From: Numida meleagris
Lineage: Eukaryota > Chordata > Aves > Galliformes > Numididae
Reading direction: 5' to 3'
DNA length: 64,000 nt
NCBI RefSeq assembly: GCF_002078875.1
Contig: NC_034410.1
Coordinates: 102,740,138-102,804,137 of the forward strand
The stretch's first letter is position 1, and every line of letters begins with the position of its first letter. Below the pieces are notes generated by a model. The model was not told where the DNA came from. It searched no databases and worked only from the letters and a program-made list of their open reading frames with translations. Positions 17,215 through 63,107 of the stretch are shown here, one piece after another. A program made the translations under genes and the position numbers.

Positions 17215-17410
17215 GGTCAGGTTGGGGGTTAGGAAAAGGCTCTGCACCAGGAGGGCGGTGGGCATGGCCCTAAGCTGCTAGAGTTCAAGGAGCATTTGGA
17301 CAGCACTCTCAGAAATATGATTTGAATTTTGGGTGGTCCTGCGTGGAGTCAGGGGGTTGGCCCAATGATCTTGTGGGTCCCTTCCAACTTAGGATGTTGT
17401 ATGGCTCTAA
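17215..17410 (+). repeat. CR1 3' fragment
   Basis: The segment has CR1 3'-region features in plus orientation: GGCTCTGCACCAGGAGGGCGG, GGGCATGGCCC, GAGCATTTGGACAGC, and the tail CTTGTGGGTCCCTTCCAACT. It is a 5'-truncated copy sitting just upstream of the mariner element. A related sequence in the opposite orientation occurs at 44181-44725. Confidence 0.8.
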
Positions 17411-17618
17411 TACACATAGATAATATAGACACGTATTCACTTCTTGGAGATAGGAAAGGAGGAAACAGTACTGATTTATTCTCTCAACATTTCTTCAAAT
17501 ACCTCAAGCAAGTATTATTTTCCCTGCAGTATTTTAAAAAATATCTCAAGAAATCAGAGAAAGGCTTTTCTGAGGAGGAGAAAGAAAGGAGATGAAGAAA
17601 AATTCAAGTACGTACCTA

Positions 17619-27938: not shown

Positions 27939-27980
27939 AGTTTGGGGTCCCTTCCAACCTAAGTCATTCCACAACTCTAA
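27939..27980 (+). repeat. CR1 3' tail remnant
   Basis: GGGGTCCCTTCCAACCTAAG followed by TCATTCCACAACTCTA is the terminal segment of a CR1 in plus orientation. Only about 40 bp is recognisable. Confidence 0.6.
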
Positions 27981-29155: not shown

Positions 29156-29859
29156 TGGCTGGAAAGCTGCATGACAGAAAGGGACCTTGGTGTGCTTATG
29201 GACAGTCGGCTGAATATGAGCCAGCAGTGTGCCCAGGTGGCCAAGAAGGCCAATGGCATCCTGGCTTGGATCAGGAACAGTGTGGTGAGCAGGACTAGGG
29301 AAGTCATCCTGCCCCTGTACTCGGCATTGGTGAGGCCTCACCTCGAGTACTGTGTTCAGTTTTGGGCGCCTCAGTACAGAAAGGACATTGAGGTGCTGGA
29401 GCAGGTCCAAAGAAGGGCAACAAGGCTTGTGAAGGGCTTGGAGAATATGCCCTACGAGGAGAGACTTAAGGAACTGGGGCTGTTTAGTCTGGGGAAGATG
29501 AGGCTGAGGGGAGACCTCATTGCTCTCTTCAAATACCTGAAAGGTGATTGCAATGAGAGCGGGGCTGCTACCTTCTCAGTGGTGACAGGACAAGGGGAAA
29601 TGGCCTCAAGTTGCACCAGGGGAGGTTTAGGTTGGATATCAGGAAAAAATTCTTTACCGAAAGGGTTGTTAAGCACTGGAACAGGCTCCCCAGGGAGGTG
29701 GTTGAGTCACCTTCCTTGAATTTGTTTAAAAACCGTTTGGATGTGGTGCTCGGGGACATGATCTAGTGGTGGGTTGTTAGAGCAGTATGGTTAGGTTGCG
29801 GTTGGACTTGATGATCTTGAAGGTCCTTTCCAACCTGAGCAATTCTATGACTCTATGAA
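29156..29859 (+). mobile_element. CR1 LINE 3' segment
   Basis: This 704-bp copy begins in the C-terminal part of the CR1 ORF2 ([20 protein letters not shown]) and continues to the tail GAGCAATTCTATGACTCTATG. It is nearly identical to 19920-20628 over most of its length and in the same orientation, so both belong to one recent subfamily. The reading frame is open for about 150 codons and is then interrupted. A 12-bp direct repeat (CAGTAAGAGTTT) at 29117 and 29143 lies just before the 5' junction. Confidence 0.92.
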
Positions 29860-32711
29860 GAGGCAACAAAAGTTGCATCAACTGCAGACTTAGCCACTGC
29901 TCCCATCCTGTTCAGAAGACACTGTCTTAGCAATGCTGCTGTTGACATGCTGAGGCTGGTCAACTCAAGGAGATTAACCTCACATTTCCTTCATATTCTG
30001 ATGTGCAGGAAGCTCTCTTACAACAGAAGTCATACTTAATATTCAACGTTCATGATGCACACAATGGAAACAAGTACTTTATTATGACATTGGAGATTCA
30101 AAGTCTCTCCAGCTCTCTTTACTCACAGCCTGCAATGCTTACTTATCTGTTTCAACTTTTCCTTACTTACAGGCCCTTAAAAGCATCCCTCTGTGCAACA
30201 TGGTCGGTTCACTATAATTTTGCTTAACCTAAGTCTTATCTTGTTCTTTGCATGCAATATCAAGCTCATTTCAGAAAGGATGTACAATCATTTGATTACA
30301 ATAGTGCATTCTGAAAGATACAGTCCAGGAGCAAAGCAGCTTTTCTTTTTTTCTCATTTTTATATAAAATCCAACACACGTCCAAAACAAAAGAGAGGAA
30401 GAAGGCAGCAACTACCTTCAATAATCCAGGCAAAGTGCGAAAAAGAACACAGTACAAACATTTTTCCCAAATAATAATGAAGTGTTAAATCTATGGACTA
30501 TTGTGAGAGGATAAAATGAAGTTACAAAGCAAAACAACTCGGACCCGGTATTAAGTCTTTGTGAATCTGGTCATTTAGACCTTTTGCTCATTTTAAAAGC
30601 AGCAACCTATTTTCAATTTAATTTTGACACATAAAATATGTTATAGAAAGTAAATATTAAGTTCTGAAATTTCATGAGAGTGTACTTGAGTAAAATGAGA
30701 ACAAGATAAAATTCATACAACAAAAGAAATGTAGTTTACTAGGAGAGCAATCCTCCAGATATGCATAGATCAGATATAACCCAACTTCAGAAGCTGTCCA
30801 GAGGCTAGCCCTCTTAAATTACGTGGGAAGCTACTGCAACAACAATACCATGAAGTTTTTATACTCTACGACTATAAAAAAAAAAAGAAATTTTTAAATA
30901 GGTGGTGTTCACACTCATTATCTTTCTCTATATTACATTGCTGTCAGTCACAACACTTGAATTTAGTAAGATTGTTCAAATGCTGCCACAGAAGTGTGGT
31001 GAACTGAAACGTAACACTTCATAACCTTCCTTAGGTCTTAAGTGAAAAAAATAAATGAAGCACACTAGAAGAAGTTTACGTTATATTAAACAAGCAGTAG
31101 CTCACATGTTCCCAGATTCTCCTGGCTAAAATTCATTGTTAAGACAGCAACTGTTCAAAAAAATGATTTTTCCAAAAACTTAAATAGTTGTTCTTATTTG
31201 ATTAAGTTACCCCATTTCAAGCAAATCTTCAAAGATTTTACTTGGTAGGTGAGAGTGTCTACACTTCACTAAGACTGAACATCTAAATTTAATTTTGTAT
31301 TACCTTCATATTCCCTATCCAGTTATTCAAAGGAGAAAAAACGCTACACTATTTTGTCATTGCTGAAAAATATTCCTTACACTGAGGAGCAGAAATGTAC
31401 TTCAGTCCTGGTCTGCAAAAACCTTTCATGGCCCTATCCTCACTTTTTCCTTAAGAAGAGAATGTCACCACACTCAACTATAAGAACAGAGCTGTGCACC
31501 AGGGACTAGAATAAGGTCAAATTCATTTCCAGTTGTCATCAGAACCAGGATATGAATTAAGCCTCCAAGAACATATTAGTTGAGTAACACACACAGCCCT
31601 CTTAAAGGTTTCCTTCCCTTCCCCCACAGCTACAAGCTTGGATTTATAAAAAGAGAATCCTCTTCAGGCACAACAGGTTGGACATAATGAAGCACCGTTT
31701 CTATAGTCCTCTAGGCACCAACTTGAAAAGATGCTTCGCTAGTAGCAGTGATTGGAGAACACTTCTCCAGAGACCAAAGAAAAAGTAATTCAATTTCAGT
31801 TGGTAAGAACTAGTATCTAGGAATGGCTGTTTTATAGACATTCTTTTTAGCTTCATATTACAGAAATGAATCAAGACTATATTAATTCAAGAAAAGTCTT
31901 ATTACTAAAAAACAGAAGAACTTCCTTGTGTTACTCACAATGAACTCCCAGAGCTTTCCCATTAACACAAAAACACAACCAGATAGCAAGTTATTTTAAT
32001 GCTTACTGTATCTTTCCTCACCACTCCACGAACAATGAAAAGAGGGGAAAAACTGGTGGTATCTTATGAAATAAAAAAGTTCTGTGATACAGATTCAGAG
32101 AAAATACAGATTTTTTTTTTAAAGAAGCAAGTATTATCCAACAAATGCTTCATTTCTAAAGCTATGTGGTGTTTCTAGATAAGCCTATGCAACCTTATTT
32201 CTTAGAGGTTGCTTTATGATAAAGGAGAGAAGGAAAGAATTTAAGAGACTCACCTAAAGTACCTCAAAGCTGATATTTACCAACCCCATTCCATAAAGGC
32301 TAAAGAATGGACGATACTCCAGCAGAAAATAAGAAGTAAAATAAAACTAAATGCCTCCTTTTTCCCTCATGTAGGGGGAAGAAGAGAGCACTGCTGTAGG
32401 AGCTGATCAAGAGCCATACCAGGAGACTTCTTAGTTGAGAAAAAGAAAAGTCATCTATCAGCAAAGCCAGACAACCTGCATGCACAGCATGTTTAATCCC
32501 AGAATATCAGCCTTCAGTTAACTATGTCAGATTGCGAGCATAACGTAAGCAGTGTGATAATGAGACTTCAAATATGGCATGAAGAGACATTCTATCTTGT
32601 ATTCACTACAGAGTAAATTGTAGACTATTTGATCAGTTTTTCAAACATCTCCCCCTCCCCGTGAATCCAAATTAAATCTATTCCCTCCGTTTTATGCTAT
32701 TTTGTACTTAC

Positions 32712-32796
32712 TGCTGGTAGCAGAGACTGCATGTTCTGGTTGGAGTCAGCTATAGTAGCTAGATAAACCAAGTTTGTGTGGAGCATCTGCTGGTAT
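32712..32796 (-). CDS. SS18: SS18 coding exon 3 (end of SNH domain)
   Basis: The translation YQQMLHTNLVYLATIADSNQ followed by NMQSLLPA completes the SNH domain. The acceptor is GTAG at 32800-32797 and the donor GTAAGT starts at 32711. The exon is 85 nt, enters in phase 2 and leaves in phase 0 (residue 77). Next upstream in transcription is a 1.2-kb intron; the following intron 3 is the largest of the gene. Confidence 0.95.
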
Positions 32797-33978
32797 CTAC
32801 CAAAAAAAGGAAAAGAGGCCTTAAGTCACAATGACAATCTTGGAATTTAACTCTATGCATGTAAAGAAACAACTTCCAACAACTTACAAGAGTACCATTA
32901 TCAGAAATCCTACATCTTTTCCTCGCATTTCCCCATTTCCCAACCTTTCCCAGTTTCTCTGCCAAATCTGGCCTGTTTGTTCTCTCTACAGTTTTTGTCT
33001 CGCAAATTAAATCTAGAACACGGTGACTGTTCTCAACTGTTTCACTTCCTACCCTAAACAAAGTCACTAGGAGGCATTTAGAGTATGAGTGTGTCTGTTT
33101 GATGCAATTTCCAACAGAAACACTAGGAAAAGAGAGCTCTTTTTGTTATGTCCCTAGATGCAAGGTATCATATCAATATGAATCATGACCAAGAACAGCG
33201 TAAACATTTCATCAGGACCCTGGGCTTTGGATGTTCACTGTTGAATTGTTTTTCTGCTGCAGAACCAGATTCCAGAGTATCAACATCCAGCTCAGAGTCA
33301 AAAGAACAACCTTGTAAGCAGGAACAGAGTAAAAGTACGTAACTATAGGCTTGCATACAACTTAAAATAGTAACTGTGTGCTACACTCTACTCATATCAA
33401 TAGAAGTAATCCCCTGAAACAAAAATACCTACCATTTGTCACCCCAGCTTTCCCCCCAGATTACCAGTCTCTTAGAAAGGGCCTCAACAGCTACACTGTG
33501 ATACCCCATCTGTCATCACATGGTGGAATATTTGTCCAGGTCCACAGCTGTCTCACTCTGCAGAAACCTCACTAAACAACAGGTTTACACGGTATATTCT
33601 GGCAAGCCAAACTTAACATGGAGTTTGTTTGCTCTCAGGCAAGTGGTGAACAGCAGAAACATTACACCATTTTGAAAGGTCTGAGAAGAAAACTACCTCT
33701 TTCCAAAACTGAAATGACAATACAGAGGTTGATCTTTCAGTTACGCAGTCCCCATTTTTGTGTCATTATGCTATCAACTTGCAGTACTCAAATTGCAATG
33801 TTTCAGTGATGGAAGCGATAGTCATACAGCAAGGAAAAAAAAAAGAACTACATTATTGGCAGCAATAGTTTTCCACTTTTCTGAGCGTGGTCCTCCTTCA
33901 AGGTGAGCTAAATAAATCAACAACTGATCTAAGATGGAAATTCACCCAGTCCACAGTAGATTTGGATTAATGCCTTAC
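32797..33978 (-). other. SS18: SS18 intron 2
   Basis: A 1.2-kb intron between the two inner SNH exons. I see no repeat or gene in it. Confidence 0.85.
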
Positions 33979-34055
33979 TGAGAGCATTCAGATGTCTTTC
34001 CTTTGTTCTGGTAGTCCATTATACACTGAATAAGATGGTTATTTTCATCCAGCAT
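33979..34055 (-). CDS. SS18: SS18 coding exon 2 (SNH domain)
   Basis: Minus-strand translation reads MLDENNHLIQCIMDYQNKGK and continues TSECS, the core of the SNH domain. The acceptor AG is at 34057-34056 and the donor GTAAGG begins at 33978. The exon is 77 nt, starts in phase 0 and ends in phase 2, completing a Gln codon with exon 3. It is essentially identical to mammalian SS18 as known. It is too short and too split to stand out as an open frame on its own. Confidence 0.95.
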
Positions 34056-36985
34056 CTGAAACAATAAAGAAGTCTGAGGTAAGTTTAATATTCTTTATGG
34101 GAAAAAATAACTGAAGACAACTATGAGTCTTACTCTTCAAAGTATGATTTTTTTTTAAAACAAACAAAATCAGTATTCCAGAAAGCCCTGCTTTAACCAA
34201 TTACTTACATTCTTCTGCTCTTCCTCCTCAGTTTCATCACGTTCAGAATAAAGGTTTCAAGTCACTATGATAGCTACATTTATCAAGTACCCTATTCAAA
34301 TACCTATGTTTGATCTGCAAGACGTTCATAGGAAGTTTTCGGAGTTTTCCGTTTCTTCATTTGATCTCAACCAAAGAACAAACTTGGAAATTTGGGGCAT
34401 AAATTTTTCTTCTCCCTCTGAAGCCCACAGTTCAATAATAAAAGGCACTGTAATGGTTAACTGATAGAAACTGAGCTTAACAGACAAGACTGTTTCAAGG
34501 AAATGTGTTGGAAAGTTAGGCCACATTTACATTATAAATATTCTGTATAATTACACTTTCTTAAAATGCGGTTTAACTGGCACAATAGACAATATTTCAG
34601 AAGTGTCTGGGAATATGAACACATGTTAATTATTTTTCTGGGGAAAATGAAGTTCTAAAACCATGGGAAATTGCAGGTCTCGTAGCCTTCTGCAGGAAGT
34701 TCATGAAATAAAGATGTTCTATGCTAACAAACTGGAAAAAAAAATACAGCCCAGTTTCCTAGAGTTGCACATTCTCAGGCTCGTGTCTTGTCTTAACCAC
34801 TCACCTGCACTCTGATCAGACAGGAATAAGTAAAACCATGGTAAATCTGAGCTACCAACCAAGTTACCCAAGCCTGCTCAGTTAAATGGAAAATTTTACA
34901 TCAATTTCTTTCCTTGGTTCCTCTCAGTGGAAACAGTGTCACATCCTAAATCTGCAAATCTGGTCACCCCTTCCTTGCCCTTACAAGTGGGACGTGGCAC
35001 CCAGCTACTGAACTTCACAAAGCTAATACGATCTTAATCATCCTCGAGGCTCTTCCCTTCTTCCAAACACCGAATCAAAACATCCCAAGTTAGAACGTGG
35101 TTGAGATTAGCCAGAAGGTTTATGATTCTACAAGGGAAGCACAAACACTGTAATTACATCACTTCCAGTTCCCTAGGAATCCAACTTTAGCAAATTCTAC
35201 CAAAAAAAAGACAACTTTTTTTCTTTTATTCCTTTTGACTAATCCACTTCTATTATGAAGAAGGTCATAAACCTCATAACCTTATGCTGTCCACTCAGGA
35301 CTTACATCCAGATAAGAATAAAGCAAACAGGTGAGTCTTCCTAAATTCAAACCGGCAATTCACCAAAACACACTAGAACGGTCAGTGAGAAATTGTTCTT
35401 GCCTGAAATTGCTGGACCTTAAGCAGGAACCACAGACAGAACCACAATATCCCAAGTTTCAGAACTCCTGACACTACAATGAACTATATCTGCACACTCA
35501 TAAGAGGATCCTGGACACACTCCTACACTGGCACACTTCATATGTACTAACATCAAGTGTTAAAGAAATGCAGTGGCCAAATTCAACAGAAAAAGAGCTG
35601 GGGAAAAATCAATTAGTACAATTTATATAGGAACTAGAGTACTTGCAAGGAAAGCCTTGAATGAAGGCCCTCCTCAAGAAGTCTCCAACTCTCTAGAGAA
35701 AGGCAGCAAATGCTTAAAGCATGTTAGCATGTGGGGTGATGAAGCGCTGGCACGAGCTGCCCAGAGAAGCCGTGGAGCCCCATCCCTGGAGGTGCTCAAG
35801 GCCAGGTTGGATGGGGCCCTGGGCAGCTGAGCTGATGGCTGGCAGCCCTGCCCATGGCAGGGGTGGGACTGGGTGGGCTTTGAGGTCCCTTCCAACTTAA
35901 GCCACTCTACAATACAGGTAGACTTTGGAACTGCCAGTGAGACAGTTGTTCTCCCTACTGCTGCCATACAGGCTGGGGAGAAAAAAAAAAGGATAAGGCT
36001 AGGAGGAAAGCAAAGGAAAGCAAACAAGAAAGAATACAACTGTTTGCTTGACAGGACTGCAGGCACTGCTTTATGCAATTTATATCCAGCTGTTGCTGAT
36101 GGAAAATCAAAGTAGTTCTTTGAAGAAGTTACAGACGCCTGCCATCACAAGATAGCCCAGCTTCCAGCTGGATGGAGACACTTCCAAGACTTCTGACAAC
36201 TTACCCGCGTCAGTTACAGAGATTCTCCAGCTTTAGCTGCACCATGGTTCTGCCAGTACACTAACACCAAATTAGTGGCTTGACTACAGCATAAGAAAAC
36301 CCCATTTGTCTACATTCTCTACACACACTTCAGCGACCTACAACCTACAGGCAGCTTTCCACCCGGTGGGTATGCATTTCCCACCTTCACTTCTGAACCA
36401 CGCACTGCTGCACTACTGTGTAAGGCTGCACTGTAGCCCTGGGTCCTCCACGACGCCCTGAGCCTGCAACACCCTCCCTGCTGACACCCACGTTCTTTCC
36501 TAAGCCTGAAGCTGATTGTATCTGACGAGCTCCCACAAGAGGAGCTTGCCACCATGAGTGGGAGAGATTTCAGAGCAAGAGTTACGCTGGTGACAGCGAG
36601 GGCTTACGCTTAAATTCCAAAGCACAGCGCTGAACACAAGCACACTCCTTCACCTCCGACAACACGGAACGCCGAGGGTTACTGCAGACCACAGGCACAT
36701 TTCCCTCCCGCAGAGGCCCTGTCACGGCCGCCGGCTATAGCGCTTCCCTTTAAGCTTCAGGGGAGGGGCAAAGCGGGACAGGGCCTTACTTCGCGGCGGC
36801 CCCAGCACTCGCCCCGCGGAGGCCGAGCCTTCAGTTACGCAGGGCCCGGCCCGCTTCCCCTGACGGCCTCACACGGCCCTCACAGCGCGGCCAGGCCCAC
36901 CGCCCTCCGCCGCACCGGGGCCTCAGCCCCGCTCCGCTCCGCCCCGCCGTCCCCTCACGGCGCGAAGCCCCGGGCCCTCCCTCAC
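34056..36985 (-). other. SS18: SS18 intron 1
   Basis: A 2.9-kb intron. The part near exon 1 (from about 36.65 kb) is GC-rich and belongs to the promoter CpG island. One CR1 tail sits at 35738-35915. The rest shows nothing recognisable. Confidence 0.85.
35738..35915 (+). repeat. CR1 3' fragment
   Basis: Plus-strand CR1 tail: GAGCTGCCCAGAGAAGCCGT, GGAGGTGCTCAAGGCCAGG, GGATGGGGCCCTGGGCAGC, then GAGGTCCCTTCCAACTTAAG. It is the same family region as 37939-38348, in the opposite orientation. Confidence 0.85.
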
Positions 36986-37600
36986 CTTCTGGATGGCGGC
37001 CGGCGTGATCTCGCCCTTCCCCCGCTGCCGGGGGGCCGCAAACGCCACCGACATGTCGCGCCGCAGCCGCCAGCAGGGCTCAGCCCGGCCCAGCCCCCGC
37101 CCGCTCACGCGCACCCCGCGGCAGCGGGAGGCGGCCGCGATCCGGGAACAGGGCTGCGCGGTGGGCGGGGCGGCGGCCCAGCGGGACGGCCCACCCAGCT
37201 CCCGCCGGGGAAGGGTTAAGGTGGGCCGGGAGCTCCTCCCTGCTTTCCAGCAGTGAGAAAGAAGCCATGAGGAGGGTCGGGCGCTTTGACGAGTATGGGC
37301 AAAGCAGCGGGACCGAGAGTCGGCTGCGCCGTTCGAAAGCGGTCGCCCTGCGCCACGCCGACCTTCTCGGCCTCCCCTCTCTTTATCGCGGTGTTGGTAC
37401 GTTCCGACCCCACTCTGCTCAGCGCCGGACAGGCGGCAAAGTGGTACGGCCGGCAGAGGGGGAGATGGGAGCGCGGCGGCTCTCGCGTTACACGGGGCTG
37501 CTGTGCTCCCCGCGTGGCGGCAGTTGGTCGCGCCCAGGCAGCCCGCTCTGCCGGTGGGGCGGGGATGCGGCTCCGCGGAGTGCCGCCTAAACTGACAGGT
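36650..37600. promoter_or_regulatory. SS18: CpG island and SS18 promoter
   Basis: The sequence changes from AT-rich to strongly GC- and CpG-rich here. It covers SS18 exon 1, its 5' untranslated region and the flanking upstream DNA. A GC box (GTGGGCGGGGCGG) lies near 37160. No TATA box is evident on the minus strand, which fits a housekeeping CpG promoter. Long open frames on both strands here reflect GC-rich composition and carry no known protein signature. The exact transcription start cannot be read from the sequence. Confidence 0.75.
36986..37054 (-). CDS. SS18: SS18 coding exon 1 (residues 1-23)
   Basis: The ATG at 37054-37052 opens a 23-codon segment beginning MSVAFAAPRQRGKGEITPAA, which is the conserved SS18 N-terminus and the start of the SNH domain that contacts the BRG1/BRM ATPases. 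The exon ends in AAG at 36986, followed by a GTGAGG donor, phase 0. No ATG was seen on the minus strand in the roughly 200 bases upstream, so this start is clear. It lies inside a CpG island, as expected for a ubiquitously expressed gene. Confidence 0.96.
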
Positions 37601-41640: not shown

Positions 41641-42331
41641 TGTCATGGTTTTGTGATTTTTCTTATTGGTATTCCACATCATAACATCATGTAGTGAATG
41701 TACCTGGTTCTCAGAAGAGAAGGACTACTACATTTCCCAGGGTACTTTTCTCCTCTGNNNNNNNNNNNNNNNNNNNNNNNNNNNNNNNNNNNNNNNNNNN
41801 NNNNNNNNNNNNNNNNNNNNNNNNNNNNNNNNNNNNNNNNNNNNNNNNNNNNNNNNNNNNNNNNNNNNNNNNNNNNNNNNNNNNNNNNNNNNNNNNNNNN
41901 NNNNNNNNNNNNNNNNNNNNNNNNNNNNNNNNNNNNNNNNNNNNNNNNNNNNNNNNNNNNNNNNNNNNNNNNNNNNNNNNNNNNNNNNNNNNNNNNNNNN
42001 NNNNNNNNNNNNNNNNNNNNNNNNNNNNNNNNNNNNNNNNNNNNNNNNNNNNNNNNNNNNNNNNNNNNNNNNNNNNNNNNNNNNNNNNNNNNNNNNNNNN
42101 NNNNNNNNNNNNTTAAATTGTAATTATATGGTATTATAGTGTGTTGTTTTGCATTCCGATATCTTATTTAGTAAATTAGTTTGTTTCTCCTCAGATTGTT
42201 GCCGCTGTTTTTTGCTCTCAGGGCCATCTCCTTACCCTTTTTTCCCTTTTCCCTTTTCCCACGGTGTGGGCCCGTGGGTCCCCCGTCCCCTTCGTCACAG
42301 AACCGGGCCGAACACCCGTAAACCACTGACA
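41641..42331. mobile_element. Solo LTR of an endogenous retrovirus, interrupted by an assembly gap
   Basis: The segment begins TGTCATGG and ends CACTGACA, so it has the TG...CA ends of an LTR with a 5-bp inverted terminus (TGTCA/TGACA). The 5 bases just before it (41636-41640) and just after it (42332-42336) are both CAGGT, a perfect 5-bp target-site duplication. The right part carries a T/C-rich and GC-rich stretch of the kind found around an LTR R-U5. Bases 41758-42112 are N, so the true length is unknown, and an internal retroviral region could be hidden there. No retroviral coding sequence is visible. Strand and family are not determined. Confidence 0.7.
41758..42112. other. Assembly gap (355 N)
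   Basis: A run of undetermined bases inside the LTR-like element. Apparent open frames across it are artefacts. Confidence 1.
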
Positions 42332-46330: not shown

Positions 46331-47582
46331 AAGGGTCAGCTCTAGGAGAAACAGGTAGCAAAAACAAATAGATTTTGAGAAAGCAAAGGAAGGGACACTT
46401 ACATGCTATTTCAATCATGCTCGAGACTTTCAGCTCAAAATCCTAGTTAATCACTGATCACTGACATCATTTATCTTCTTCAGCCCATTGTCAGATTTGA
46501 CAAAGCACTGCTCAAAATTTTCTTTCCAAAATTTATAGATTTACATCTTCTAAGCAAAAAGTTTGATGAGGGGAAATACTAAGGTTCAAATCAACCACTA
46601 AAAACACTTTATGCTCTTTATCAACTTTATCTTCTTATCAGCTGTTGAGATGTTGACTTTAGCATCCTCTCCATTAGTCCTTCTTAGAATTTTCAAAGCT
46701 GCAGTCCTCATGTTGCTTTTTTTTCTACCAGCATGTGTGGAAGGAGCTTCTCATAAATGTCTGCAGTACATCACTGTCTACCTTCAAAACTTTTCCACAC
46801 TGAAATACCTATGAAACCAGGGGCAGCACTTAAGTCGCAATTTGGCATTATTCTGTAGCGAAGTAAACCTCACACCTAGACATTCTCAAAAGCCAGTTTT
46901 TTCCTGCAGCCACTCTACACTCACCTGTGGCCACACGTTCCCACTTTGTCTCCTGTAGCATCACTGTTACTCATCTGATCTTGTAGTGAGATGGTTAAAG
47001 AAGCTAAAATATCAGAAAAACAATTGCTTTTCTATATGACTAGTTTTATGCCTATTGTATTTCATGAATTGGAAGCAGATGACTTTCAATGTCAAAGCAA
47101 GGGAAGGCAATTACTGGGTCAGAAGAGTTGAGCAGAATCACCCTTCTTTGTCAGCAATTAACTTTTAGATTGAAGCTATAAACACCTAGTATACTGAGAA
47201 TACTCGTTATCACATTGATCTGTGATGTCTTGTTATATCCCTGCACCTATGTGTCTGTAACCACCTTATTTCCTTTATCTTCTACTTTGTTTGTAAGCAT
47301 TTTGTTCAGGGGCTGCATCTGTATTGACTTTGTAAACCACAACTTTTGCAACTTCGCAACTTTTTGCTGTGAGGTTTACCACAGTGTATCTTCTTTCCTT
47401 CCTAACAGATGCCAGACATTACTATTTACTGCTTGGAGAGGATTACACAGACTTCACAGAACTGTATGTCTAGGTCATTGTGAAAAGGCTTAGTATTATA
47501 ACATCTCAACGTAATATAAGTAAAGTTAATATTGAAAATAAGAGCAATGTCTTTATTTTGATATAATAGTTTGGAATTTTAG
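46331..47582. other. Intergenic sequence before the PSMA8 relic
   Basis: AT-rich DNA with no recognised repeat. If PSMA8 exon 1 once lay upstream, this would be part of its intron 1. I find no trace of exon 1 here. Confidence 0.65.
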
Positions 47583-47694
47583 TGCTGGATACAGCTGTGT
47601 TGGATGCACACGTTATCTGTCAACATCCTTCAGGAGAAAAGAATTGTAAGGAAAACATGTACACTTGATGATCATGTCTGGTTGGCTTTTGCAG
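47583..47694 (+). pseudogene. PSMA8: PSMA8 relic exon 2
   Basis: One frame reads LQEKRIVRKTCTLDDHVWLA followed by FAG. Over 25 residues ending there, 16 match the PSMA8 segment that ends in LDDHVCMAFAG. The exon ends GCAG at 47694 with a GT directly after it, the same junction and phase as in mammals. An AG at 47581-47582 follows a T-rich run and could be the old acceptor. The 5' third, which should encode the GTNIVVLGVEKK region, is degraded and shifted in frame; the exon is about 15 bases shorter than expected. Confidence 0.88.
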
Positions 47695-50040
47695 GTATTT
47701 TTCCTAGGTTTATTACTCTACAGTATGTTATCTTGCAGGTTTGGGGTATGAAAAAGGCCGCTCCTGTGAAAAGCATTGTGGAAACGAACACAGTGGTTTG
47801 GGAGCTTGGTATTAGGAAATCACTGAATCACAGAATGTCAGGGATTGGAAGGGACCTTGAGTTCCTACATGACTGATCTAAATATAGCAGAAGGATTCTT
47901 ATGAGGCCTGTGCAAAATATTGTGATCTTTAAAACTTGCTGATCCCTTGTTATCTTTTTAAAACATCTTAGACAGGTCTGTTTGCATCTCATCAGCAGAA
48001 ACAAGCGTGTTGGAGAATAGAAGCAGCTCTGGACTATCTGAAACTGCAATAAGCAGACTGGAGGGGTGGAGAAAGGCAAACCCAGAGAATGAATTCAGCA
48101 GAGCAAATTGAGATGATACTGGAAATAACCCTTGAGAATTTGAAGATAAGTTTGGACTTGAATCTGTGTTGTTGTCCTCCTCCTCTGCCCTAGGAACTAC
48201 TTCTTGATATGTCACTCTCATATATGAGTCACCTGCACCATATATGAAGTAACCCTTGTGAACATTTGCCTCCCCAGATATTATCTTTCTTCAGATGAGG
48301 ATTGAATGAAGGGAAAACTGCATGGAAACTCAGCAAACTGATTAGCAAAGCTGCCTGGAGCATGTATCTCATCTTAATGTACAGTTTCCTGGGACCTCTG
48401 AACTACCTGGTTGTGGCTAGTTGCCACTGCTAGACAAAGATACGTTCTTCCACTGTCCTAGCTGAGGTGGCTTTGCTGCCTGGGTGAAGCAGGGTAAGTC
48501 AGGCTGGAAGCCAGACTGGCAGAAAGATAAGCCAGGAAGAAAAGGTTTCCAGCAGGGTATTACCCAGGCTAGGCAAGAGACAGCTCAGACACAGGGAACT
48601 TGACTAGCAGTGACTTAGGTCAGCCTAAACTCACATACCTGGTGTTCTCCTGGGTGCCACTTTTTCCTCCTGTGTCTGCTCCAAGCTAGGCACTTGCATT
48701 TCCTCCCTGGTGCTGCCTCTGATGCTTGACTGACACCTTATGAGTTGACTGAAATCCTCCTAACTGTGTGAGGGTAAGTGAGAGTGAAGGAAGAAGTTTG
48801 GAACTCACATTTTTGGTGGTCAAACAATTACTATCACTCACTGAGACTGCAGTTTGATGTTAGAGAAAATTGTAATACCATGCGTGCAAGCTGCTACTGA
48901 AGAAAATTTAATCATCCATGAAAATTCACTGATTCATCAAAAAAAAGAATTCTTTTTTTGGTGAGTTGCCATGAAATTGCATGATTGTTAAATCCAGTTC
49001 AAGGGAAGCTATGGGAATGTATGTATAGAATTAGTTGGGAAGAAAAGAACTGCTGGTTTTTTGTGGCAAACTCCAGTTAGGTGGTGCTGCCAGGATGTGA
49101 AACTCTCCTCTTAGCTTGCTTTCAAAACGGATGAAAACTAAACTCAGCTTGTCAAAAAAATCAGTTATGAGGTGGGTCAACACCCGCATCTGGCTTAACA
49201 GCTGCAGAACAGCTTTTCCTGGCACAAAGAGAGAAGAAGTTGTAGTTAGGGACAGGAGATGGGGGATTTTCCTCTATTGATAGTGGTGTGTTCTTAGGTT
49301 GGCTGATATTGACCAAGCTATTCTCCTGGAAGGGTATTCCAAGGCACAGGAGCAATTTTCATCTGTTTTTAATAACTGGCTCAGCAAAATGAGTCCACTT
49401 TTTTTTCTAAATGCTTTAATTTTGGAAACCAGGTATTTTCACTGGCCGCACAAGCAGGCAGATTTGCAAAAGGATGGGAAGACGAAGAACTATGCCAGTG
49501 AGTGGATAACTGAATAGGAAACTGGGAAATCATACACCTCTTCAACTGGCTTTACTTTTAGGCAAATTAAAATGTGAAATTTTGCCTTGAATTTTCTACA
49601 GTAGTTTGTAATGAAGAAGAATAAGGACATACCTCAGCAACCCTCTCTTGTTACATGCTGTAATGGTGCTACCAGCCCAGTTTCATGATGCAGTGGGGTG
49701 GTACAATACAACAAACATGATGTATGGTACAGTAGGGAGCCAGCTATTTTTAATGTGTTTTTGGAGGATCTAAGTCCATATTTCATTTCCTAAGTGAACT
49801 TGCAGTAAACTTTAAAAAAAAAAAACAAAAAACTTTTATGGCCTGAATTTTATTTAAAATTTCTCAGAATGACAAAGTTACTTCTGCATGCCCTTTTAAA
49901 TCTGTGTTTCTGCCTTCACCTGTATTGCTTTTTCAGCAGTTTCTGATTTAAAGAAATCATTACAATAGTTTGCTTCTTGAATTTTAACTTTTTGTTAACT
50001 AATGAAAGAATCATTGTGATTTCTTTAGGATTATGCTTAT
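47695..50040 (+). other. Former PSMA8 intron 2
   Basis: Apart from a short antisense CR1 tail at 47819-47862 no repeat or coding sequence is recognised. The stretch is ordinary AT-rich DNA. Confidence 0.6.
47819..47862 (-). repeat. CR1 3' tail remnant (antisense)
   Basis: AATCACTGAATCACAGAATG followed by GGATTGGAAGGGACCTTGAG is the end of a CR1 in minus orientation. Only some 45 bp remain. Confidence 0.7.
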
Positions 50041-50138
50041 GTTGACCTGACTGCTAATGCCAGACTGGTGATTAATAACACCATAAACTGTCTCAGAAAC
50101 AGCTGAATACATCTCATACAACATTGCAACTCTTGCAG
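50041..50138 (+). pseudogene. PSMA8: PSMA8 relic exon 3
   Basis: The start reads DLTANARLVINNT, like GLTADARVVINRA of PSMA8. After a deletion of about 25 bases and a frame change, the end reads ETAEYISYNIATLA, like VTVEYITRFIATLK. In the first frame a TGA stop interrupts it (50104-50106). The donor GTAAGT at 50139 is perfect. The acceptor is not clear; an AG at 50027-50028 lies after a pyrimidine-rich stretch. Confidence 0.85.
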
Positions 50139-53100
50139 GTAAGTAGTTGGACACTTTTAGTCTTCTGTGTAAAAACTTCACGTGATCCTTAGTATTGAAA
50201 ACAAACCAGTTGTTTATATTTCTATCTGTGAAAAGAGGAAGTCAGGTTAAACTGTCTTTGCATGACTTCTTTAAAAAATGTGAGTATCCCTCAAGAAAAA
50301 AAACTCTTTGTCACAAGAAAATACTAGCTATTATCAGCTTTTTTATTTTAAAGAGCATCAACAAACATATCTGTCCCTTGTGTATAGATCTAGCGGAGAG
50401 CTTTCTTGTGTAACTTGGAAATGATCATGCAGAGAGAGGAACCAAAAAATATTACTGTATAAAAAAGTTGAGCTGAAACTGTAAACTTAAAAACAACAAT
50501 AAAATCTCTTTCAGAAGAGAGCAGTGTGAACAGCCAAACTGAAAGGAAAACTAGTAAATACATTCGTAATTTCTAATGTTGAAGTGCAACACCTGCAGTG
50601 GGCTGATTGATTGCAACCATCTGAGACACTCCTTTGAATCTGTTCACATCTGTGCCTGAGGTCCTGTTAAAGGATGACCTGATTAAGCTTTAATTTCTGT
50701 AGTCTCTGTGATTTTAACAGGGAATGCTTACTAAGGCAGAGGTAGAAACCTGTTATTTCTGTGTGACTTGAGTGGATTTGTGCAACTAGAATGCTAACTA
50801 CAAACTAACCTCTGATTATCAAAAATAATCTGTTGGTATATGAGAAATTAATAGCTCTGTGGTGAACATCCATATCTAGCCTTTTCAGTTTTGTGTTTTT
50901 CTTGTACGTTGGGCAAGCATCTTAATTTTATGGGATGCCTCACGGTGCTGGCCATAAAGCAATGGCTGTAGACCTTTGGGTATGTCTGTCTTGACTTGTG
51001 GGTTTTGATAGTAGTGGGAGTCCTGGGTTGTACCAGACAGATTCATCTAGTACCTAACAGTTTTGGAAGGTAACTGTCAATTTTATGTATATATATTTAT
51101 ATGTTCATGCATAAATGGACTGTATGGACAATCTCATCTGTGCAATAAAAGTGTTTGGGTAGTCAATACCTTTCTCAAAAGGTGGATGTTGAATTCTGGA
51201 TGAAATACCAGCAGGATTAGAAAATTAAAGTGAGCTAGGGAAAGTGTATATGGATTTGGAAATAAATTTATAATAAACTATAGCAAAGATATACGAATAG
51301 TTGTAAAAGCTTTACAAAGCTTGATGCTTTCCTCAAGAAATGGTAGCCTGTTCACACAACAAATAATAAGTAGATTCCACCTGAGATTTGTTTCTTAGTG
51401 ATTCTTTTGTTCGCTTGTTGCTTTTTATAGAAACTTTTCTTTGTGGATATTGAAAATTCTTATGCAAACTGTATTTGAAGGGACGCTAATAGCAACTAAG
51501 ATGTTGCAAGAGATTTTGTGCTAGTGGATTTTGAGTCATACCTTGCTCTTGATCACGGGTTTTGCAACTTACTCAGGCAGGACTGGGACACATATGGTAC
51601 AGGCTCCCTTGTGTGTAGAGAGTAAACTAAAAGATCTCCCTTCTGGAGGGGCAGCTGTACCACTGGAAAAAAAAAATAGTGAGAGAACTGATTTGGGTGA
51701 TTTTACTTAGGTTTTTAGACCAGCTACAGGGAAACGCTTGAATGTGTTGATTACTCATGGTAGCAATGTCCAAGAGTATGTATTTTATTAATCCTTACTA
51801 AAGGAAGGTAGACTGAGGTAGGGTTGAGGAAGAACTCTGGCTGAAGAAGTGGTTGCACCTGGCTACAGTCTGTACTTTGTGCTCAGATTATTTACCACTT
51901 GAATTTACTGGAGTAACTTCATGGCTGGCTTTGTGTCTACTGGCTGCCGAAGGCTCTTACAGTGCATGAGCTCATGGGGTTCATCTTCATTAGTTGACAA
52001 GACTGCCAAAGGCCAATTTCTGGCCCCAAGACCATGCTTTTGTACGAAGCTCTTCTCATCTCTGGAATAGAGCATCTGTATTCTGTCGGACTACTCCTGA
52101 CCGCAGCTCAGGCATTGTCTGGGGGAGGACTACTCAGGCTGAGTGAAAGGATGCCACAGACTACTGTAGCTATAGAGATAATGCAGCTTTAGTGTCTAGA
52201 CCTGTGCACTTGTAACTTTTCTGGCATAGGTGACTGAAAGCCGCTGCAGCAGATTGATCTCTCCACCACAGACAGAAGCAGCGTTCACCCATTCAGAATG
52301 CCTTGGCTTAATTCTCTTGAGCAGTATGATGCAGGTATCTTTTGCTCTTAGTAGGAGAAGAGGTGGGAGAAAGATAGTAAACCAACGTATTTTAATACTG
52401 TCTGTCCTTTGTTATGTGTAAATCAGGAAAAATTTCCTGTAAAATGGATTAAAACTCCCCAAACCTATAAGCATATGTGCAAAATCAAAAATCACATTTA
52501 CTTTGAGGCAAAGAACTGAAGGGTATAATGATCCTTTAAAGTCTTACACAAGTTGTATTTATGTTTCTGTGCACTTCATGAATTTCTTGCTATCTTTGGC
52601 CATCAGTGAAATAAAAAAATCAAAACAGAAAGTTAAATAGTGACTGTCACATCTGTATTGGCCTATCTTTGTTTCCAAGTGGATGGTTTTAATGCATAAG
52701 TTTTTCTCATTAATATGTTAGTTTTATCAAGGTGATATTTTTGTCCTTTTCCAACACATCTTAATGCCGCTGATGGCTTTAACATAGCTGCTAGTGTTGA
52801 CAAGTAAATAAGCACTTCATGTTGTCTTTACTTATGAAACTTTGTGGAGGAAGTTAGCTTTTACATCAATACCTTTCATAGGTCAGGTAGTAGCTATTCT
52901 TGATGTTACTATTTTCTCCTTGGTAGTTACAGACAAAAGGTAAGCAGAAGTACTAATTCCTTCTTTCTTCCTTTCTTACATAATGCATGGTTGTTTTTAT
53001 TTATTTTTTTCCACAAGGTGAGTGTGGAGTAGCAGAGCTAACTTTCTGATGCAAGTGGTAGTGTTTTTGTTTTATAATCTATTGTTTTGTACTGCGATGT

Positions 53101-54464
53101 GCCCATCACGCCTTGTTTTTGGTTCTCTGTCCTGCTGGGAACAGCCTGCAATTTCTTTTTATTCTCTATTTTTTGCATCAGGGGTGTAGTTAATTGGATT
53201 ACAGTTCATGTTCTCTGCTTGATTCCCAAGAGCAAGAAAGCAGGCAAGTCCTAGCCACCATCTGCTTTTCCCCTGTCCTGTGGATTTCTTTCATCTCTAA
53301 TGAACTCAGACCAAAACACAGAACACTGCTCTCATGAGCTACCATAATACTTCAAAGGAGTTTTTGAGCTGGCTGGACAAGAATTTTGGGACATGGAGAT
53401 AGACATTAAATAGATCAAGGAATGAGCCCCAGAAAAGCTGAGGACTTACTGAATCCAACATCTGTTTTACTAATAACAGTGTTGTAAATATGAAAAAGAT
53501 CCATGTACTTGTTTCACTGTAAACAGTTCAAGGCACCATTCTCACCATCTCATTGTAATGTGTGAAAATGTTGATGAAACCTTGACTGCAGGATTGGCAG
53601 TGGTATATTGGCAGTTGGGCAACAGTTGATTGATGAAGGAATGGTATGGGTGGAGATGTCTGTAATCAGCTCCTCTGTAAACTCAGATGAAATTTCTGCG
53701 CACCATTTAGTTTCCTGGCAAAAGAACTCATGCTAGGGTTTTACTATTCTTACGCTATTTTATTATTTTAGTTACTTGGTCTTATTAAACTTTAGAGAAG
53801 GGCAGGTAATCTTTGAATCACTACAAATATGTATTTGAGATATTGCAAGAAAAGACAACGGTTTAAACACTAGAAATCAGCTTTTCACATCAAACTACAC
53901 ATACACTCTTCAATTCACAAAGAGCTCCAATAGTAATTTAGATGTCAGTGAAACTGAAACAAGTTTTGAATTCCTTTTGAGGAAAATCCAGTTAACACTT
54001 TTAAAACCAGATGTAAAGAAATCAACCATGGCATTTGTAAAATCCCGAATATAGCTCTGCATTGGTTAGTGAAGTATTCTACATCCTGCTTACTCAGAAT
54101 GCTTCTCTCGTAAACAGAATTTGAGTTTCTTCAACTGTTGCTCATGGGACAGTGTTAAAGAGTTTCAAAATGTCTGTCCTTCACCTAGCACTATATCAGA
54201 AGTTTTAGCAAACACAGAATAGCTTGTGTGGTCTATTTAAAGGAAAAGATATGTGGCATGAAAAAGTTGAGAACTGCTGTTCTGATAGAGTATCTAGGAA
54301 CATAAATATAAGATCAAATCTTGAAATGTTATGAGACTTCAAGTATTGCATGATGATGGTGGGAGAATCCCATTATGAAATGTATACAAGTCTTTCTGAG
54401 ATTGATTACAGCAGGTCAGATTGTTCATGTTGTGGTGAGATACTGTCCTTTCTGTACTCCACAG
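50139..54464 (+). other. Former PSMA8 introns 3 and 4
   Basis: AT-rich DNA with a possible relic of exon 4 at 51569-51669. No CR1 or other transposon was recognised over these 4.3 kb, which is sparse compared with the flanks. Confidence 0.55.
51569..51669 (+). pseudogene. PSMA8: Possible PSMA8 relic exon 4
   Basis: Between exons 3 and 5 this stretch shows short matches in the right order: TACTCAG, ATGGTA, CCTTGTGTGTAG, GATCTCCCTTCTGGA and CCACTGGAAA. They correspond to the codons for YTQSNG, PFG, ALIVG, TDPSG and HAWK. It is about 18 bases shorter than the expected exon and has no open frame. The match is weak and could be chance. Confidence 0.3.
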
Positions 54465-54536
54465 GCCAATGTGATGCAAAATGGTATAAAAGCTTTTGGA
54501 AGAGGACAGCTCAAAAGGACACCATCAAAGGTAGAA
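54465..54536 (+). pseudogene. PSMA8: PSMA8 relic exon 5
   Basis: A clear acceptor (TCTGTACTCCACAG) precedes GCCAATG, matching the ANAIG start of this exon. Further on, SFWKRTAQKDTIKG resembles EFLEKNYTEDAIAS in an alternative frame. A GTAAGT donor follows at 54537. The exon should be about 123 nt and is only 72, so an internal deletion of about 50 bases is likely. It is close to the securely identified exon 6, about 110 bp downstream. Confidence 0.55.
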
Positions 54537-54644
54537 GTAAGTAATGTAGTACAGTGCATGTGGTAAATGCTTGAAGAAATGCTTGGATTTATTTCCGTTT
54601 TGAAAACGTAAACATACTTGGCTTAATGATTTAATTGTACATTG

Positions 54645-54710
54645 TGCTGTGAAATCTGGTAGAAAATAACACTGAACTTCCTACAATAAGGAGAAACCAG
54701 CTACTTATAG
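54645..54710 (+). pseudogene. PSMA8: PSMA8 relic exon 6
   Basis: The end of the exon reads NNTELPTIRRNQLLI, with 9 of 15 residues equal to the PSMA8 segment KNIELAIIRRNQPLK. It is followed by a GTATGT donor at 54711. Upstream, GTGAAATCTGGTAGAAAA matches the codons for VQSGGK but in another frame, so there is a frameshift; that frame also meets TAA and TGA stops. The acceptor AG is lost. Confidence 0.88.
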
Positions 54711-55444
54711 GTATGTGTTAATGACTTATTAGGAAACAAGGATAAAACTTTATACAAAAGCTTCTCATGACAGTTATTCCAGGTGACACCTGTGCATCCA
54801 GTCTGAAATATGAAATCTCTCCTAACATCTGCTGGTACAATGTTGGGTGGCTTTTATAGCGTCTCTGTAGATTGATAGCACTGGGAGCTATAGTGATTGC
54901 TGCTGATTTATAATAGTGTAAGACATTGCTGGGAATGTTTCATACAGGAAGCAATGTAGGAAGGCGTATGGCAACATGCTATTTGCACTGGTCATAAGAA
55001 GACATCATTGCTTTTGAAAATTATCAAAGTACTAGGAATGTTTTATCCTGTAGTAATCTGTTTCACAGCATTTCTGATATGCTGCAGTCCCTTCATAGCT
55101 TCTGTTTCTATTGCACGTGGAAAATGTAGACTTCAAAACATATTCAAAAACTAACATTAAAAATATTATCAGACTGTGCGTAGTTTGTTTTAGGGGTTTT
55201 AATTTTATTTTTTTGGAACTGCTGTATTTTCACTACTGACTTTATTGTGTGACAAAAAGAGAATACAGAAAATGCTGAGCTATCTAGGAGTTTACTGAGA
55301 TACTAAACAAACTCATCAGTATCAAATGACAAGATTATTGTTTTAGCTTGTAATTATTTCTGCTGTGTCTTGAAGAAGTCCTGCTCTAGACGTGAGACCT
55401 GATAAACAAAATATTTTGACTGTTTAAGAGAAATGAATATTGGC

Positions 55445-55992
55445 CAGTAATGTGTCCTTGCAGCAAGGAAAGCTAATGGTACCTTGGGCCAAGTATTGCT
55501 AACAGCACTGGTGAGGCCACATGTGGAGTGCTGGATCCAGTTCTGGGCTCCCCACTATGCAGGAGACGTGGACATGAATGTAGGCCACAGAAGTCCTGAA
55601 GGATTTGGAGCATCTCTCCTGTGAGGAGAGGCTTGGAAAGCTGAGGGTGTTCATTGTGGAGAAGAGGAGGCTTGGGGGGATTCTCATCAGTGTGAATAAA
55701 TGCCTGAAGGGAGGGTGCAAAGGAGGCAGAGGCAGACTCTATTGAGCGATGCCCAGTGACAGAACAAGAATCAGAAGTCACAAACTGGAACACAAGTGGT
55801 TTGCTCTGAACAACTGAAAGCATTTCTGTGGGGATGATGGAGCACTGACACAGGTTGTCCAGAGGCTGTGGAGTCTCCCCCTTGAAGATCTTCTGAAGCT
55901 GCTGGGACATGGGCCTGGGCACACTGCTTTGGGTGGCCCTGCTTGAGCAGGATCTCCAGAGATCTCTTCCAAATTCAGCCTGAGATTCTGTA
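55445..55992 (+). mobile_element. CR1 3' segment in former PSMA8 intron 6
   Basis: Plus-strand CR1 ORF2 C-terminal region and 3' end: AACAGCACTGGTGAGGCCAC, GGAGTGCTGGATCCAGTTCT, CTGTGAGGAGAGGCTTGG and the tail GGATCTCCAGAGATCTCTTC. Several indels show that it is old. It lies between the relic exons 6 and 7 and is the only sizeable CR1 in the sense direction of PSMA8. Confidence 0.88.
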
Positions 55993-57626
55993 GTAGTAGT
56001 GGAAGAAAAAAGAACATCTTCAAAACTGTTAATTGTTCCAGTTCATCACACTTCTTTCCCCAGCAACTCTCAGGTGTGGATTAGCTGTATGAAAGACAGT
56101 CCCCAGGAGAAAAAGGTAGATCCGAATTTACCCAGCCTAAATACAAGTACACAGCGTTTCCTATTAACTGTGTCTAGGACTTCAGTTTGAGTAACAAATT
56201 TCATCGAGTCTGCTTTGAGACCTGCTGTGCATTTCATCATACATTTGATCCTAAAACAGTATGGTAAGGGACCGTGACTTGGATGCTTAAGAAAACAGCA
56301 TAGGAAAAAAAAGGGAGGAGGAGCAATAATTAAATGCTTTCCCAAATACGTAAAGAAGTTAAATACGTAATTTGCTCTTCATTAATGTTTTTGACATCAG
56401 TCTAATTTTTTAGTTTTCCCATTTGCCTGAGGTTTAAAATGAGATTTCTGTCCCTTCAAGTATGAAAAATGGCGGAGGGTAAGGTGAAGAGAAATAATAT
56501 AATTCTTTTTTTCCTCATCATGAAAAGAATAAGAAATTAAGACCAGGTATTCTTTTTATTTGATCAAGTAATCTAGCTTGTTAGAAGCATCCATGAGTCC
56601 AAAAGAAGGAAACGAGATCACTGTTCAGATTCAGAAATAGGGTATTTCTGTGGTTTTATTCATTATGTGTTAAGGTTGAATCAAACTATGAATTACAGCG
56701 GAAGGCCAGATATTCAAGCACAGGAAGATAGAAGTTAAATGAGCACACCACACCACCAATAGTCTCCTGCAACTTAATGCTTTTGAGGAAAACATGGACA
56801 CAGACTTGCTTTTTGAAGAATTCGTCATTTACCCTGATAAAACTGATTTGCTATGTTCCTAATCACTAGTGGGTTTTGGGTAGTTTGGTTTTTCTTTGCT
56901 GTTTGTTTGCTTTGTTTTCTTCTTTCACATAGAAAAAATAATTTTGTGCAGTACATTTATTTTCCCAGCAAAGTTGGAATACTCACCAGAATGTTAATTC
57001 TTGACATTTTTTTTATTTTAAAAATTAAAATTTCTAATAGCTGGCATAACCACCTATGTAAAAAATAATAAAATGATTATTTTCACAAATATATAATGTT
57101 TTTTTAAATTTTGGGAAGTACTTCCTGGCATATAGTTCCAGCTGACATCTGAACTTAGGACTGTTTATGCTGTTTCCATCTACAGCAACAGAATTCCAAT
57201 CTCTGCTTAAGAATGTAGGAGAACACCAATGCAATTTTGATTTGTCTGCACCTGGTGTTCAGATATTAGCAGAGTAATTTGTTACAGCTTTTGCTCAGCC
57301 TCATCAGTGCTAGGATGCTCTTCAGTGAAATGGCTACTGGTTTGCAGTATAACAGAAGACTGCTTGCTGCACTACATTAATACTGGGAAGGAGATGTAGT
57401 CCCATTTAGTCCCTCTGGTAACTCTTCTGTTGGTTGCAGGCAGCATCTTATTTTACCGTCATCTGAGTCTTGTATCAGAATCAAGAAAATCTGGTTCTCA
57501 TGGTTGGCATCATTTTGAAATGCCTCACAAATATTTAGTAGCACTGTTTTTGCTATGGAACATAAATGAATAAATAGATTACAGCACTGCATATGGAAAT
57601 CAGGATTTTTTTTTTCTTATTCCTAG
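55993..57626 (+). other. Rest of former PSMA8 intron 6
   Basis: AT-rich sequence ending in the T-rich acceptor tract of relic exon 7. Nothing else is recognised. Confidence 0.55.
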
Positions 57627-57706
57627 TTTTTAGTGTAAAAGATGCTGAAATGCAAGTTTCAGAAACAGAGGGGAAAAGAATCTGAAAAGAAAGAAAAATA
57701 CCTGAG
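57627..57706 (+). pseudogene. PSMA8: PSMA8 relic exon 7 (C-terminal exon)
   Basis: A strong polypyrimidine tract and TAG acceptor (57606-57626) precede FSVKDAEMQVSETEGKRI, then a TGA stop and KERKI. This matches FSAKEVELYVTEIEKEKEE and the lysine/glutamate-rich tail of PSMA8. One base appears to be missing at the start, where a Met codon is expected. The lysine-rich end is still recognisable at the nucleotide level. Confidence 0.87.
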
Positions 57707-62771: not shown

Positions 62772-62843
62772 ATGCTGCGGGGCGGCGCGGGGCCCTACGC
62801 GACCCGGCCGCCCCCCTCGCCTTCCCTTTCGCCTTCTCCATGA
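62772..62843 (+). other. Upstream ORF 2, stop overlaps the TAF4B start
   Basis: A 23-codon frame from ATG at 62772 whose TGA (62841-62843) overlaps the TAF4B ATG (62840-62842) as ATGA. The upstream ATG has G at -3, while the TAF4B ATG has T at -3. This arrangement is typical of translation by termination and re-initiation or by leaky scanning. Confidence 0.55.
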
Positions 62844-63107
62844 GCGCTCCGGCGGCGGCGGCCCCCGTCAGGCTGATGCCCGGCGGGCACCCGGAGCAGC
62901 CGCCCGCCGGCTCTCCCGCCGGGGGCTCGGCTCCCGCGTGCGGCAGTCCCGCCGCCAAGGTGCCCGGCTGCCCGGCACCCTCCGCTCCCTCCGCGGGGCC
63001 CCCGGCGGTGCGGGCGGCTGCTGCGGGGGGCCCGCGGCCGGTGGTGGTGCCCAAGGGACCGCCCGCCGCCACCATCCAGCTGCCGGCCAACTTCCAGCTG
63101 CCCCCAG
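62840..63107 (+). CDS. TAF4B: TAF4B coding exon 1 (TFIID subunit 4b, N-terminus)
   Basis: TAF4B is a TFIID subunit, a paralogue of TAF4, enriched in gonads and needed for germ-cell gene expression in mammals. The exon encodes 89 residues plus one base of the next codon, starting MSAPAAAAPVRLMPGG. It is rich in Ala, Pro and Gly and ends in TIQLPANFQLPPG, the conserved TAF4-family motif (human TAF4B has TIQFPANLQLPPG at the same exon end). The donor GTGAGT begins at 63108, phase 1. The TAFH and histone-fold domains would be in later exons outside the window. The start is the first ATG in this frame after an in-frame stop at 62759. TAF4B is preferred over TAF4 because of the linkage to SS18. Confidence 0.9.

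What the first reader, a model, noticed from the sequence alone, without database searches (positions are those of the whole stretch)
47583..57706. PSMA8, the testis-specific proteasome alpha4s gene, survives here only as a broken relic
Exon relics 2, 3, 5, 6 and 7 (and perhaps 4) lie in order, on the expected strand, between SS18 and TAF4B. The protein traces are strong (LDDHVWLAFAG, LTANARLVIN, TIRRNQLL, FSVKDAEMQVSE). Frameshifts, stops and deletions make an active product impossible from this copy. In mammals PSMA8 is needed for male meiosis, so its loss means the germ-cell proteasome of this lineage must work with PSMA7 or another subunit. I do not know of a published description of this loss.
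Basis: partly seen in the sequence, partly recalled or inferred. Interest (0 to 1): 0.88.

Follow-up and report, generated by a model that had tools for sequence, protein, structure and literature searches.

The report
Dead PSMA8 gene in a bird
A chicken-like bird carries the decayed remains of PSMA8, a proteasome gene that male mice need for making sperm, still lying between its old neighbours; that birds lack this gene was already published, and the ruin adds its address and a rough age.

Summary
The relic is real. Five exon remnants of PSMA8 (exons 2, 3, 4, 6, 7) lie in order on the + strand at 47573-57698, between SS18 (minus) and TAF4B exon 1 (plus). A spliced, frameshift-tolerant alignment to turtle PSMA8 scores 246; 100 shuffles of the region reach at most 79 and 60 shuffled proteins at most 85. 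Introns persist, so it is no retrocopy. At 11 sites separating PSMA8 from PSMA7 it carries the PSMA8 residue at 8. Frame breaks and stops disable it. TAF4B exon 1 marks the bird as a galliform near chicken and king quail. Codon decay (d 0.26, 0.19-0.345) suggests loss near or before the chicken-songbird split. The loss in birds is already in print (Zhang et al. 2019, PMC6662770, passages), so that novelty claim fails; my paper searches found no description of the relic itself. Whether an intact copy lies elsewhere is untested: the genome search did not complete (11 calls).

The parts
77..37054 (-). SS18, upstream neighbour, transcribed away from the relic (start codon near 37054)
   Evidence: tblastn with recalled human SS18: 98.7% of 75 aa at 11863-11639, exon 1 at 37054-36977, further exons down to 172-77
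41758..42112 (.). run of 355 N between the SS18 start and the exon 2 relic; exon 1 could lie here
47573..47694 (+). exon 2 relic (turtle PSMA8 residues 36-77): two bases short between 47602 and 47613 (aligned as two frameshifts); GT donor kept at 47695-47696
50047..50138 (+). exon 3 relic (LTANARLVIN ... TAEYISYNIATL): 92 bases where turtle residues 78-118 would take 123, frame broken; GTAAGT donor kept at 50139
50946..51069 (+). exon 4 relic (SNGCRPLGMSVL / LVGFDSSGSPGLYQTDSSST*QFWK): frameshift near 50994, stop at 51055-51057, possible further stop at 50955-50957; GT donor kept at 51070
54463..54476 (+). tentative start of exon 5: AG acceptor followed in phase by ANVM (turtle ANVI); 31 of 1000 shuffles do as well or better
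   Evidence: (no free match above chance)
54646..54710 (+). exon 6 relic (AVKSGRK / NTELPTIRRNQLL): one frameshift; GT donor kept at 54711
57627..57698 (+). exon 7 relic (FSVKDAEMQVSETEG...): polypyrimidine tract and AG acceptor at 57625-57626, in phase with exon 6; stop at 57683-57685 in the frame of its first residues, about ten residues early
62840..63107 (+). TAF4B exon 1 (from its start codon), downstream neighbour; also shows what kind of bird this is

Best explanation
This is the in-place, intron-bearing (unitary) pseudogene of PSMA8, the gene for the testis-specific proteasome subunit alpha4s, in a galliform bird close to chicken and king quail. Shown: position, order, strand, retained introns and donor sites, PSMA8-type residues, frame breaks or stops in five exons. 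Inferred: the gene went out of use long ago, probably before or around the split of chickens from songbirds, and drifted neutrally since; it makes no alpha4s protein; and male meiosis in these birds runs on 20S proteasomes containing the ordinary alpha4, PSMA7.
For: Chain score 246 against at most 79 in 100 DNA shuffles and 85 in 60 protein shuffles; tblastn hits in order; exon 3 confirmed apart; SS18 and TAF4B flanks, with a table in PMC3436827 that lists KCTD1, PSMA8, SS18, TAF4B and ZNF521 as genes of one cluster (passage); PSMA8 residue at 8 of 11 sites that separate PSMA8 from PSMA7, PSMA7 residue at 1, neither at 2, and best identity to turtle PSMA8 (91 of 147, against 74 to 78 of 147 for six PSMA7 proteins); 65 of 103 codons whose residue never varies among 12 references still code for it, d 0.26 (0.19-0.345); simulated neutral decay through the same procedure returns d without clear bias (20 runs at each of 7 values); loss in birds stated in print (passages).
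Against: Exon 1 was not found and exon 5 is at most a trace, while simulated decay at d 0.27 leaves 6.7 of 7 exons visible on average, so larger deletions must be assumed. All 4 donor GT sites of the clear exons with a downstream intron are kept; at this decay chance alone would keep all four about one time in seven (my arithmetic), so a spliced non-coding transcript is not excluded. Turtle PSMA8 guided the alignment, which leans the residue count towards PSMA8. The review PMC12650242 calls alpha4s 'evolutionarily conserved across vertebrates' (passage). No search of the rest of the genome was answered.
Confidence: 0.93

Rival explanations
1. The remnants come from an old retrocopy or duplicate of PSMA7, not from PSMA8 itself.
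For: Exon 4 alone scores slightly better with human PSMA7 (35.0 against 31.6 bits for its larger piece).
Against: The clear pieces are 0.8 to 3.6 kb apart, with donor sites kept; position between SS18 and TAF4B; 8 of 11 diagnostic sites are PSMA8-like and 1 is PSMA7-like; exons 2 and 6 score better with PSMA8 (39.7 against 37.0 and 19.2 against 16.9 bits).
Confidence: 0.02
2. PSMA8 moved: an intact copy works elsewhere in the genome and this is only the abandoned original.
For: Not excluded: the search of the window's own genome did not complete (11 calls).
Against: Zhang et al. 2019 report Psma8 absent from birds (passages).
Confidence: 0.04
3. The locus has been re-used as a spliced testis long non-coding RNA that keeps the old splice sites.
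For: 4 of 4 donor GT sites kept, exon 7 keeps a polypyrimidine tract and AG.
Against: At the expected starts of exons 3, 4 and 6 no AG stands in place; keeping 4 donors is not far from chance at this decay; no RNA data at hand.
Confidence: 0.05
4. The disabling changes are assembly errors in a living gene.
For: There is one N run nearby (41758-42112).
Against: 38 of 103 otherwise invariant codons have changed, with losses in each of the five exons; sequencing errors do not do that.
Confidence: 0.01

Closest known systems
PSMA8 (alpha4s) of turtles and mammals
   Same: Residues and exon order; in mammals the same neighbours SS18 and TAF4B (cluster named in PMC3436827; human order recalled)
   Different: Here disabled; turtle (P0045) and mammal records are full-length proteins
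Published absence of Psma8 in birds (Zhang et al. 2019, PMC6662770)
   Same: Same conclusion for birds as a group
   Different: The passages I saw state absence only; the physical remnant, its lesions and its decay are added here. The paper's supplement was not seen
Loss of immuno- and thymoproteasome subunits and PA28 alpha/beta in birds (PMC12650242 and PMC13022661, passages)
   Same: Loss of a tissue-specific proteasome part in birds
   Different: Those concern immune, thymic and cap subunits; this one is the alpha-ring subunit of the testis

Membership tests
Unitary pseudogene of PSMA8 | Lies at the orthologous position between SS18 and TAF4B, same strand as TAF4B | tested here: met
   cluster with these genes named in PMC3436827; human order and strands recalled
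Unitary pseudogene of PSMA8 | Sequence similarity above chance, exons in order | tested here: met
Unitary pseudogene of PSMA8 | Closer to PSMA8 than to PSMA7 | tested here: met
   8 of 11 diagnostic sites; 91 of 147 identical to turtle PSMA8; exon 4 alone leans the other way
Unitary pseudogene of PSMA8 | Coding capacity destroyed | tested here: met
   frame breaks in exons 2, 3, 4 and 6, stops in exons 4 and 7
Unitary pseudogene of PSMA8 | Every exon traceable (not strictly required) | tested here: not met
   exon 1 not found, exon 5 tentative; deletions are common in old pseudogenes, so I do not count this as a defining failure
Unitary pseudogene of PSMA8 | No working copy elsewhere in the genome | not tested
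   The genome search gave no answer
Unitary pseudogene of PSMA8 | No protein-coding transcript in testis | not testable with these tools
   no RNA data
Processed pseudogene of PSMA7 | No introns | tested here: not met
   clear pieces are 0.8 to 3.6 kb apart, with GT donors

The most novel reading that the evidence does not exclude
PSMA8 died once, before the chicken-songbird split or in the ancestor of all birds. Together with the published losses of immuno- and thymoproteasome subunits this leaves birds with no tissue-specific 20S proteasome known from other vertebrates, so that bird male meiosis, unlike that of mice, runs on the constitutive PSMA7 proteasome.
Probability: 0.55. Interest if true: 0.5.

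Novelty: new member of a known kind. Interest (0 to 1): 0.36.

Why it matters
In mice PSMA8 loss stops male meiosis and leaves males infertile (PMC6662770 abstract opening, PMC6726247 passages). If no copy lies elsewhere, a bird line that lost the gene and still breeds shows that the requirement is not universal among animals that once had it. The relic turns 'not found in bird genomes' into a documented death with an address and a rough age, and rules out, for this bird, that an intact gene in its old place was merely missed in an assembly gap.

Tried and rejected
Exon 1: no match above chance in 37301-47572. Exon 5: best free match below the shuffle mean; kept only as tentative for its acceptor. 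A chain alignment with a low join penalty added many short chance pieces, so the penalty was raised; even then two pieces that I judge chance stayed in. A PSMA7 retrocopy was rejected for the introns. Paper searches for a description of the relic: PSMA8 with birds, pseudogene, gene loss, avian, chicken, reptiles, and two wider ones (one search was for substitution rates): none found in the listings, in a library that lacks most subscription journals; supplements could not be opened. Passages of PMC8947704 and PMC7498267 added nothing on birds and PSMA8. A tandem repeat scan of 37000-64000 gave one array, at 43241-43284, which I take as unrelated.
Full report
What was checked. The finding says that PSMA8, the gene of the testis proteasome subunit alpha4s, is a broken relic between SS18 and TAF4B. 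I aligned human PSMA8 (recalled; matched in full by PDB chain 9tmn_D) and turtle PSMA8 (P0045, Lepidochelys kempii) to the window.

The relic is real. tblastn places exon 2 at 47616-47699 (E 2.8e-6), exon 4 at 50958-51069 (two joined pieces, E 3.7e-5), exon 3 at 50035-50143 (two pieces, E 0.53) and exon 6 at 54668-54706 (E 7.7), all on + and in order. A frameshift-tolerant chain alignment with turtle PSMA8 also finds exon 7 at 57626-57698 and extends exon 2 to 47573; it scores 246 on the + strand, 62 on the minus strand and 54 for the reversed protein. None of 100 dinucleotide shuffles (mean 56.7, maximum 79) or 60 shuffled proteins (mean 60.0, maximum 85) comes near. The chain includes two pieces that I judge to be chance (40987-41076 and 48338-48443), so its score is a little inflated. 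Tested alone with larger gaps allowed, exon 3 scores 62.8 at 50047-50134 against a maximum of 48.2 in 60 shuffles of its interval.

What is not there. Exon 1 cannot be found between SS18 and exon 2 (36.4 against a mean of 35.9 in 24 shuffles), though a 355-base N run at 41758-42112 could hide it. Exon 5 has no free match above chance (25.8 against a mean of 30.0 in 60 shuffles). An AG followed in the expected phase by ANVM (turtle ANVI) at 54463 is a candidate, but 31 of 1000 shuffles do as well or better.

Which gene. SS18 lies upstream on the minus strand, from its start codon near 37054 down to 77, and TAF4B exon 1 downstream on the plus strand at 62840-63107. A table in PMC3436827 lists KCTD1, PSMA8, SS18, TAF4B and ZNF521 as genes of one cluster (passage). 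The clear pieces are 0.8 to 3.6 kb apart, so this is not a retrocopy. At 11 aligned sites where six PSMA8 and six PSMA7 proteins share no residue, the relic has the PSMA8 residue at 8, a PSMA7 residue at 1 and neither at 2. Over 147 aligned sites it matches turtle PSMA8 at 91, the other five PSMA8 proteins at 83 to 86, and the six PSMA7 proteins at 74 to 78. Two points lean the other way or weaken this: the alignment was guided by turtle PSMA8, and the larger piece of exon 4 scores better with human PSMA7 (35.0 against 31.6 bits).

How it is broken. Exon 2 is two bases short between 47602 and 47613 (aligned as two frameshifts). Exon 3 has 92 bases where turtle residues 78-118 would take 123. 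Exon 4 has a frameshift near 50994 and a stop at 51055-51057, and perhaps one more at 50955. Exon 6 has a frameshift. Exon 7 stops at 57683-57685 in the frame of its first residues, about ten residues early. GT donors survive after exons 2, 3, 4 and 6 (4 of 4), and exon 7 keeps a polypyrimidine tract and AG acceptor in phase with exon 6; at the expected starts of exons 3, 4 and 6 there is no AG. At this level of decay chance alone would keep four donors about one time in seven (my arithmetic).

Which animal. The TAF4B exon 1 peptide is identical to Gallus gallus at 85 of 90 columns and to Excalfactoria chinensis at 87 of 91, against 63 of 87 for zebra finch, 65 of 94 for swan goose and 60 of 100 for ostrich (five birds compared). 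In the full list of 54 relatives the four rows of Gallus and Excalfactoria stand far above the rest (E 1e-36 or better, then 6.5e-17). The window is from a galliform, most likely of the pheasant family, and its peptide is identical to neither of these two. No galliform outside that family is named in the list, so the family is a likelihood, not a result.

How old. Of 103 relic codons whose residue never varies among 12 vertebrate PSMA8 and PSMA7 proteins, 65 still code for it; maximum likelihood gives 0.26 substitutions per site since the loss of constraint (0.19-0.345 with kappa 4; 0.245 and 0.27 with kappa 2 and 6). Simulated neutral decay, with an indel rate that I assumed, passed through the same alignment returns the input value without clear bias (20 runs at each of 7 distances). 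At d 0.27 the simulation recovers on average 6.7 of 7 exons, 144 invariant codons and a chain score of 339 (5-95%: 252-417); the real locus gives five clear exons, 103 codons and 246. So either larger deletions took exons 1 and 5 (or the N run hides exon 1), or decay is somewhat deeper than 0.26. Nam et al. 2010 (PMC2911116, passages) give 0.172 substitutions per fourfold site on the chicken line since its split from songbirds (taken as 90 million years) and 1.91e-9 per site per year. By that rate the loss is about 136 million years old (99-181); by the fastest intron rate quoted in PMC2946954 (3.9e-9, passage) it is about 67 (49-88). I read this as loss near or before the chicken-songbird split, with moderate confidence; the rate of this locus was not measured.

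What is known. Zhang et al. 2019 (PMC6662770; [quoted passage not shown] So the loss in birds is published. I did not find the relic itself described in the listings of eight searches; the supplement of that paper could not be opened. Passages of two reviews say that birds lack immunoproteasomes and thymoproteasomes (PMC12650242) and PA28 alpha/beta (PMC13022661); neither mentions a PSMA8 loss in the passages I saw, and PMC12650242 calls alpha4s conserved across vertebrates, which does not hold for this bird's locus. PSMA8 is annotated in a salamander (P0050, Pleurodeles waltl), so 'amphibians' in Zhang et al. seems not to hold for all.

What it means. Inferred, not shown: the spermatocyte proteasome of these birds uses PSMA7 as its only alpha4. 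A swan PSMA7 (P0056) looks ordinary by eye beside human PSMA7. The main open hole is the rest of the genome: the search of the window's assembly did not complete, and the protein database rows are cluster representatives (120 listed of 2836 and of 6719), so an intact bird PSMA8 hidden in the 63-member turtle cluster is not excluded.

Noticed in passing
18178-20537 and 29123-29719, + strand: Two remnants that look like CR1-type retrotransposons (label recalled). 19440-19820 matches reverse transcriptase RVT_1 at E 8.4e-17; 18178-18705 and 29123-29719 match no Pfam family (only these pieces were scanned).
   Followed up: partly
45740 and 47841: Short motifs like the 3' end of bird CR1 elements (motif recalled), the second lying just after the exon 2 relic, in the old intron.
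   Followed up: no
41758-42112: 355 N; assembly gap or withheld stretch, cannot tell.
   Followed up: no
P0050 (protein, not in window): A salamander has an annotated PSMA8, against the published statement that amphibians lost it (statement).
   Followed up: no
62840-63107: TAF4B exon 1 evolves fast and tells bird groups apart: 94-96% identity to chicken and king quail, 60-72% to zebra finch, swan goose and ostrich.
   Followed up: yes
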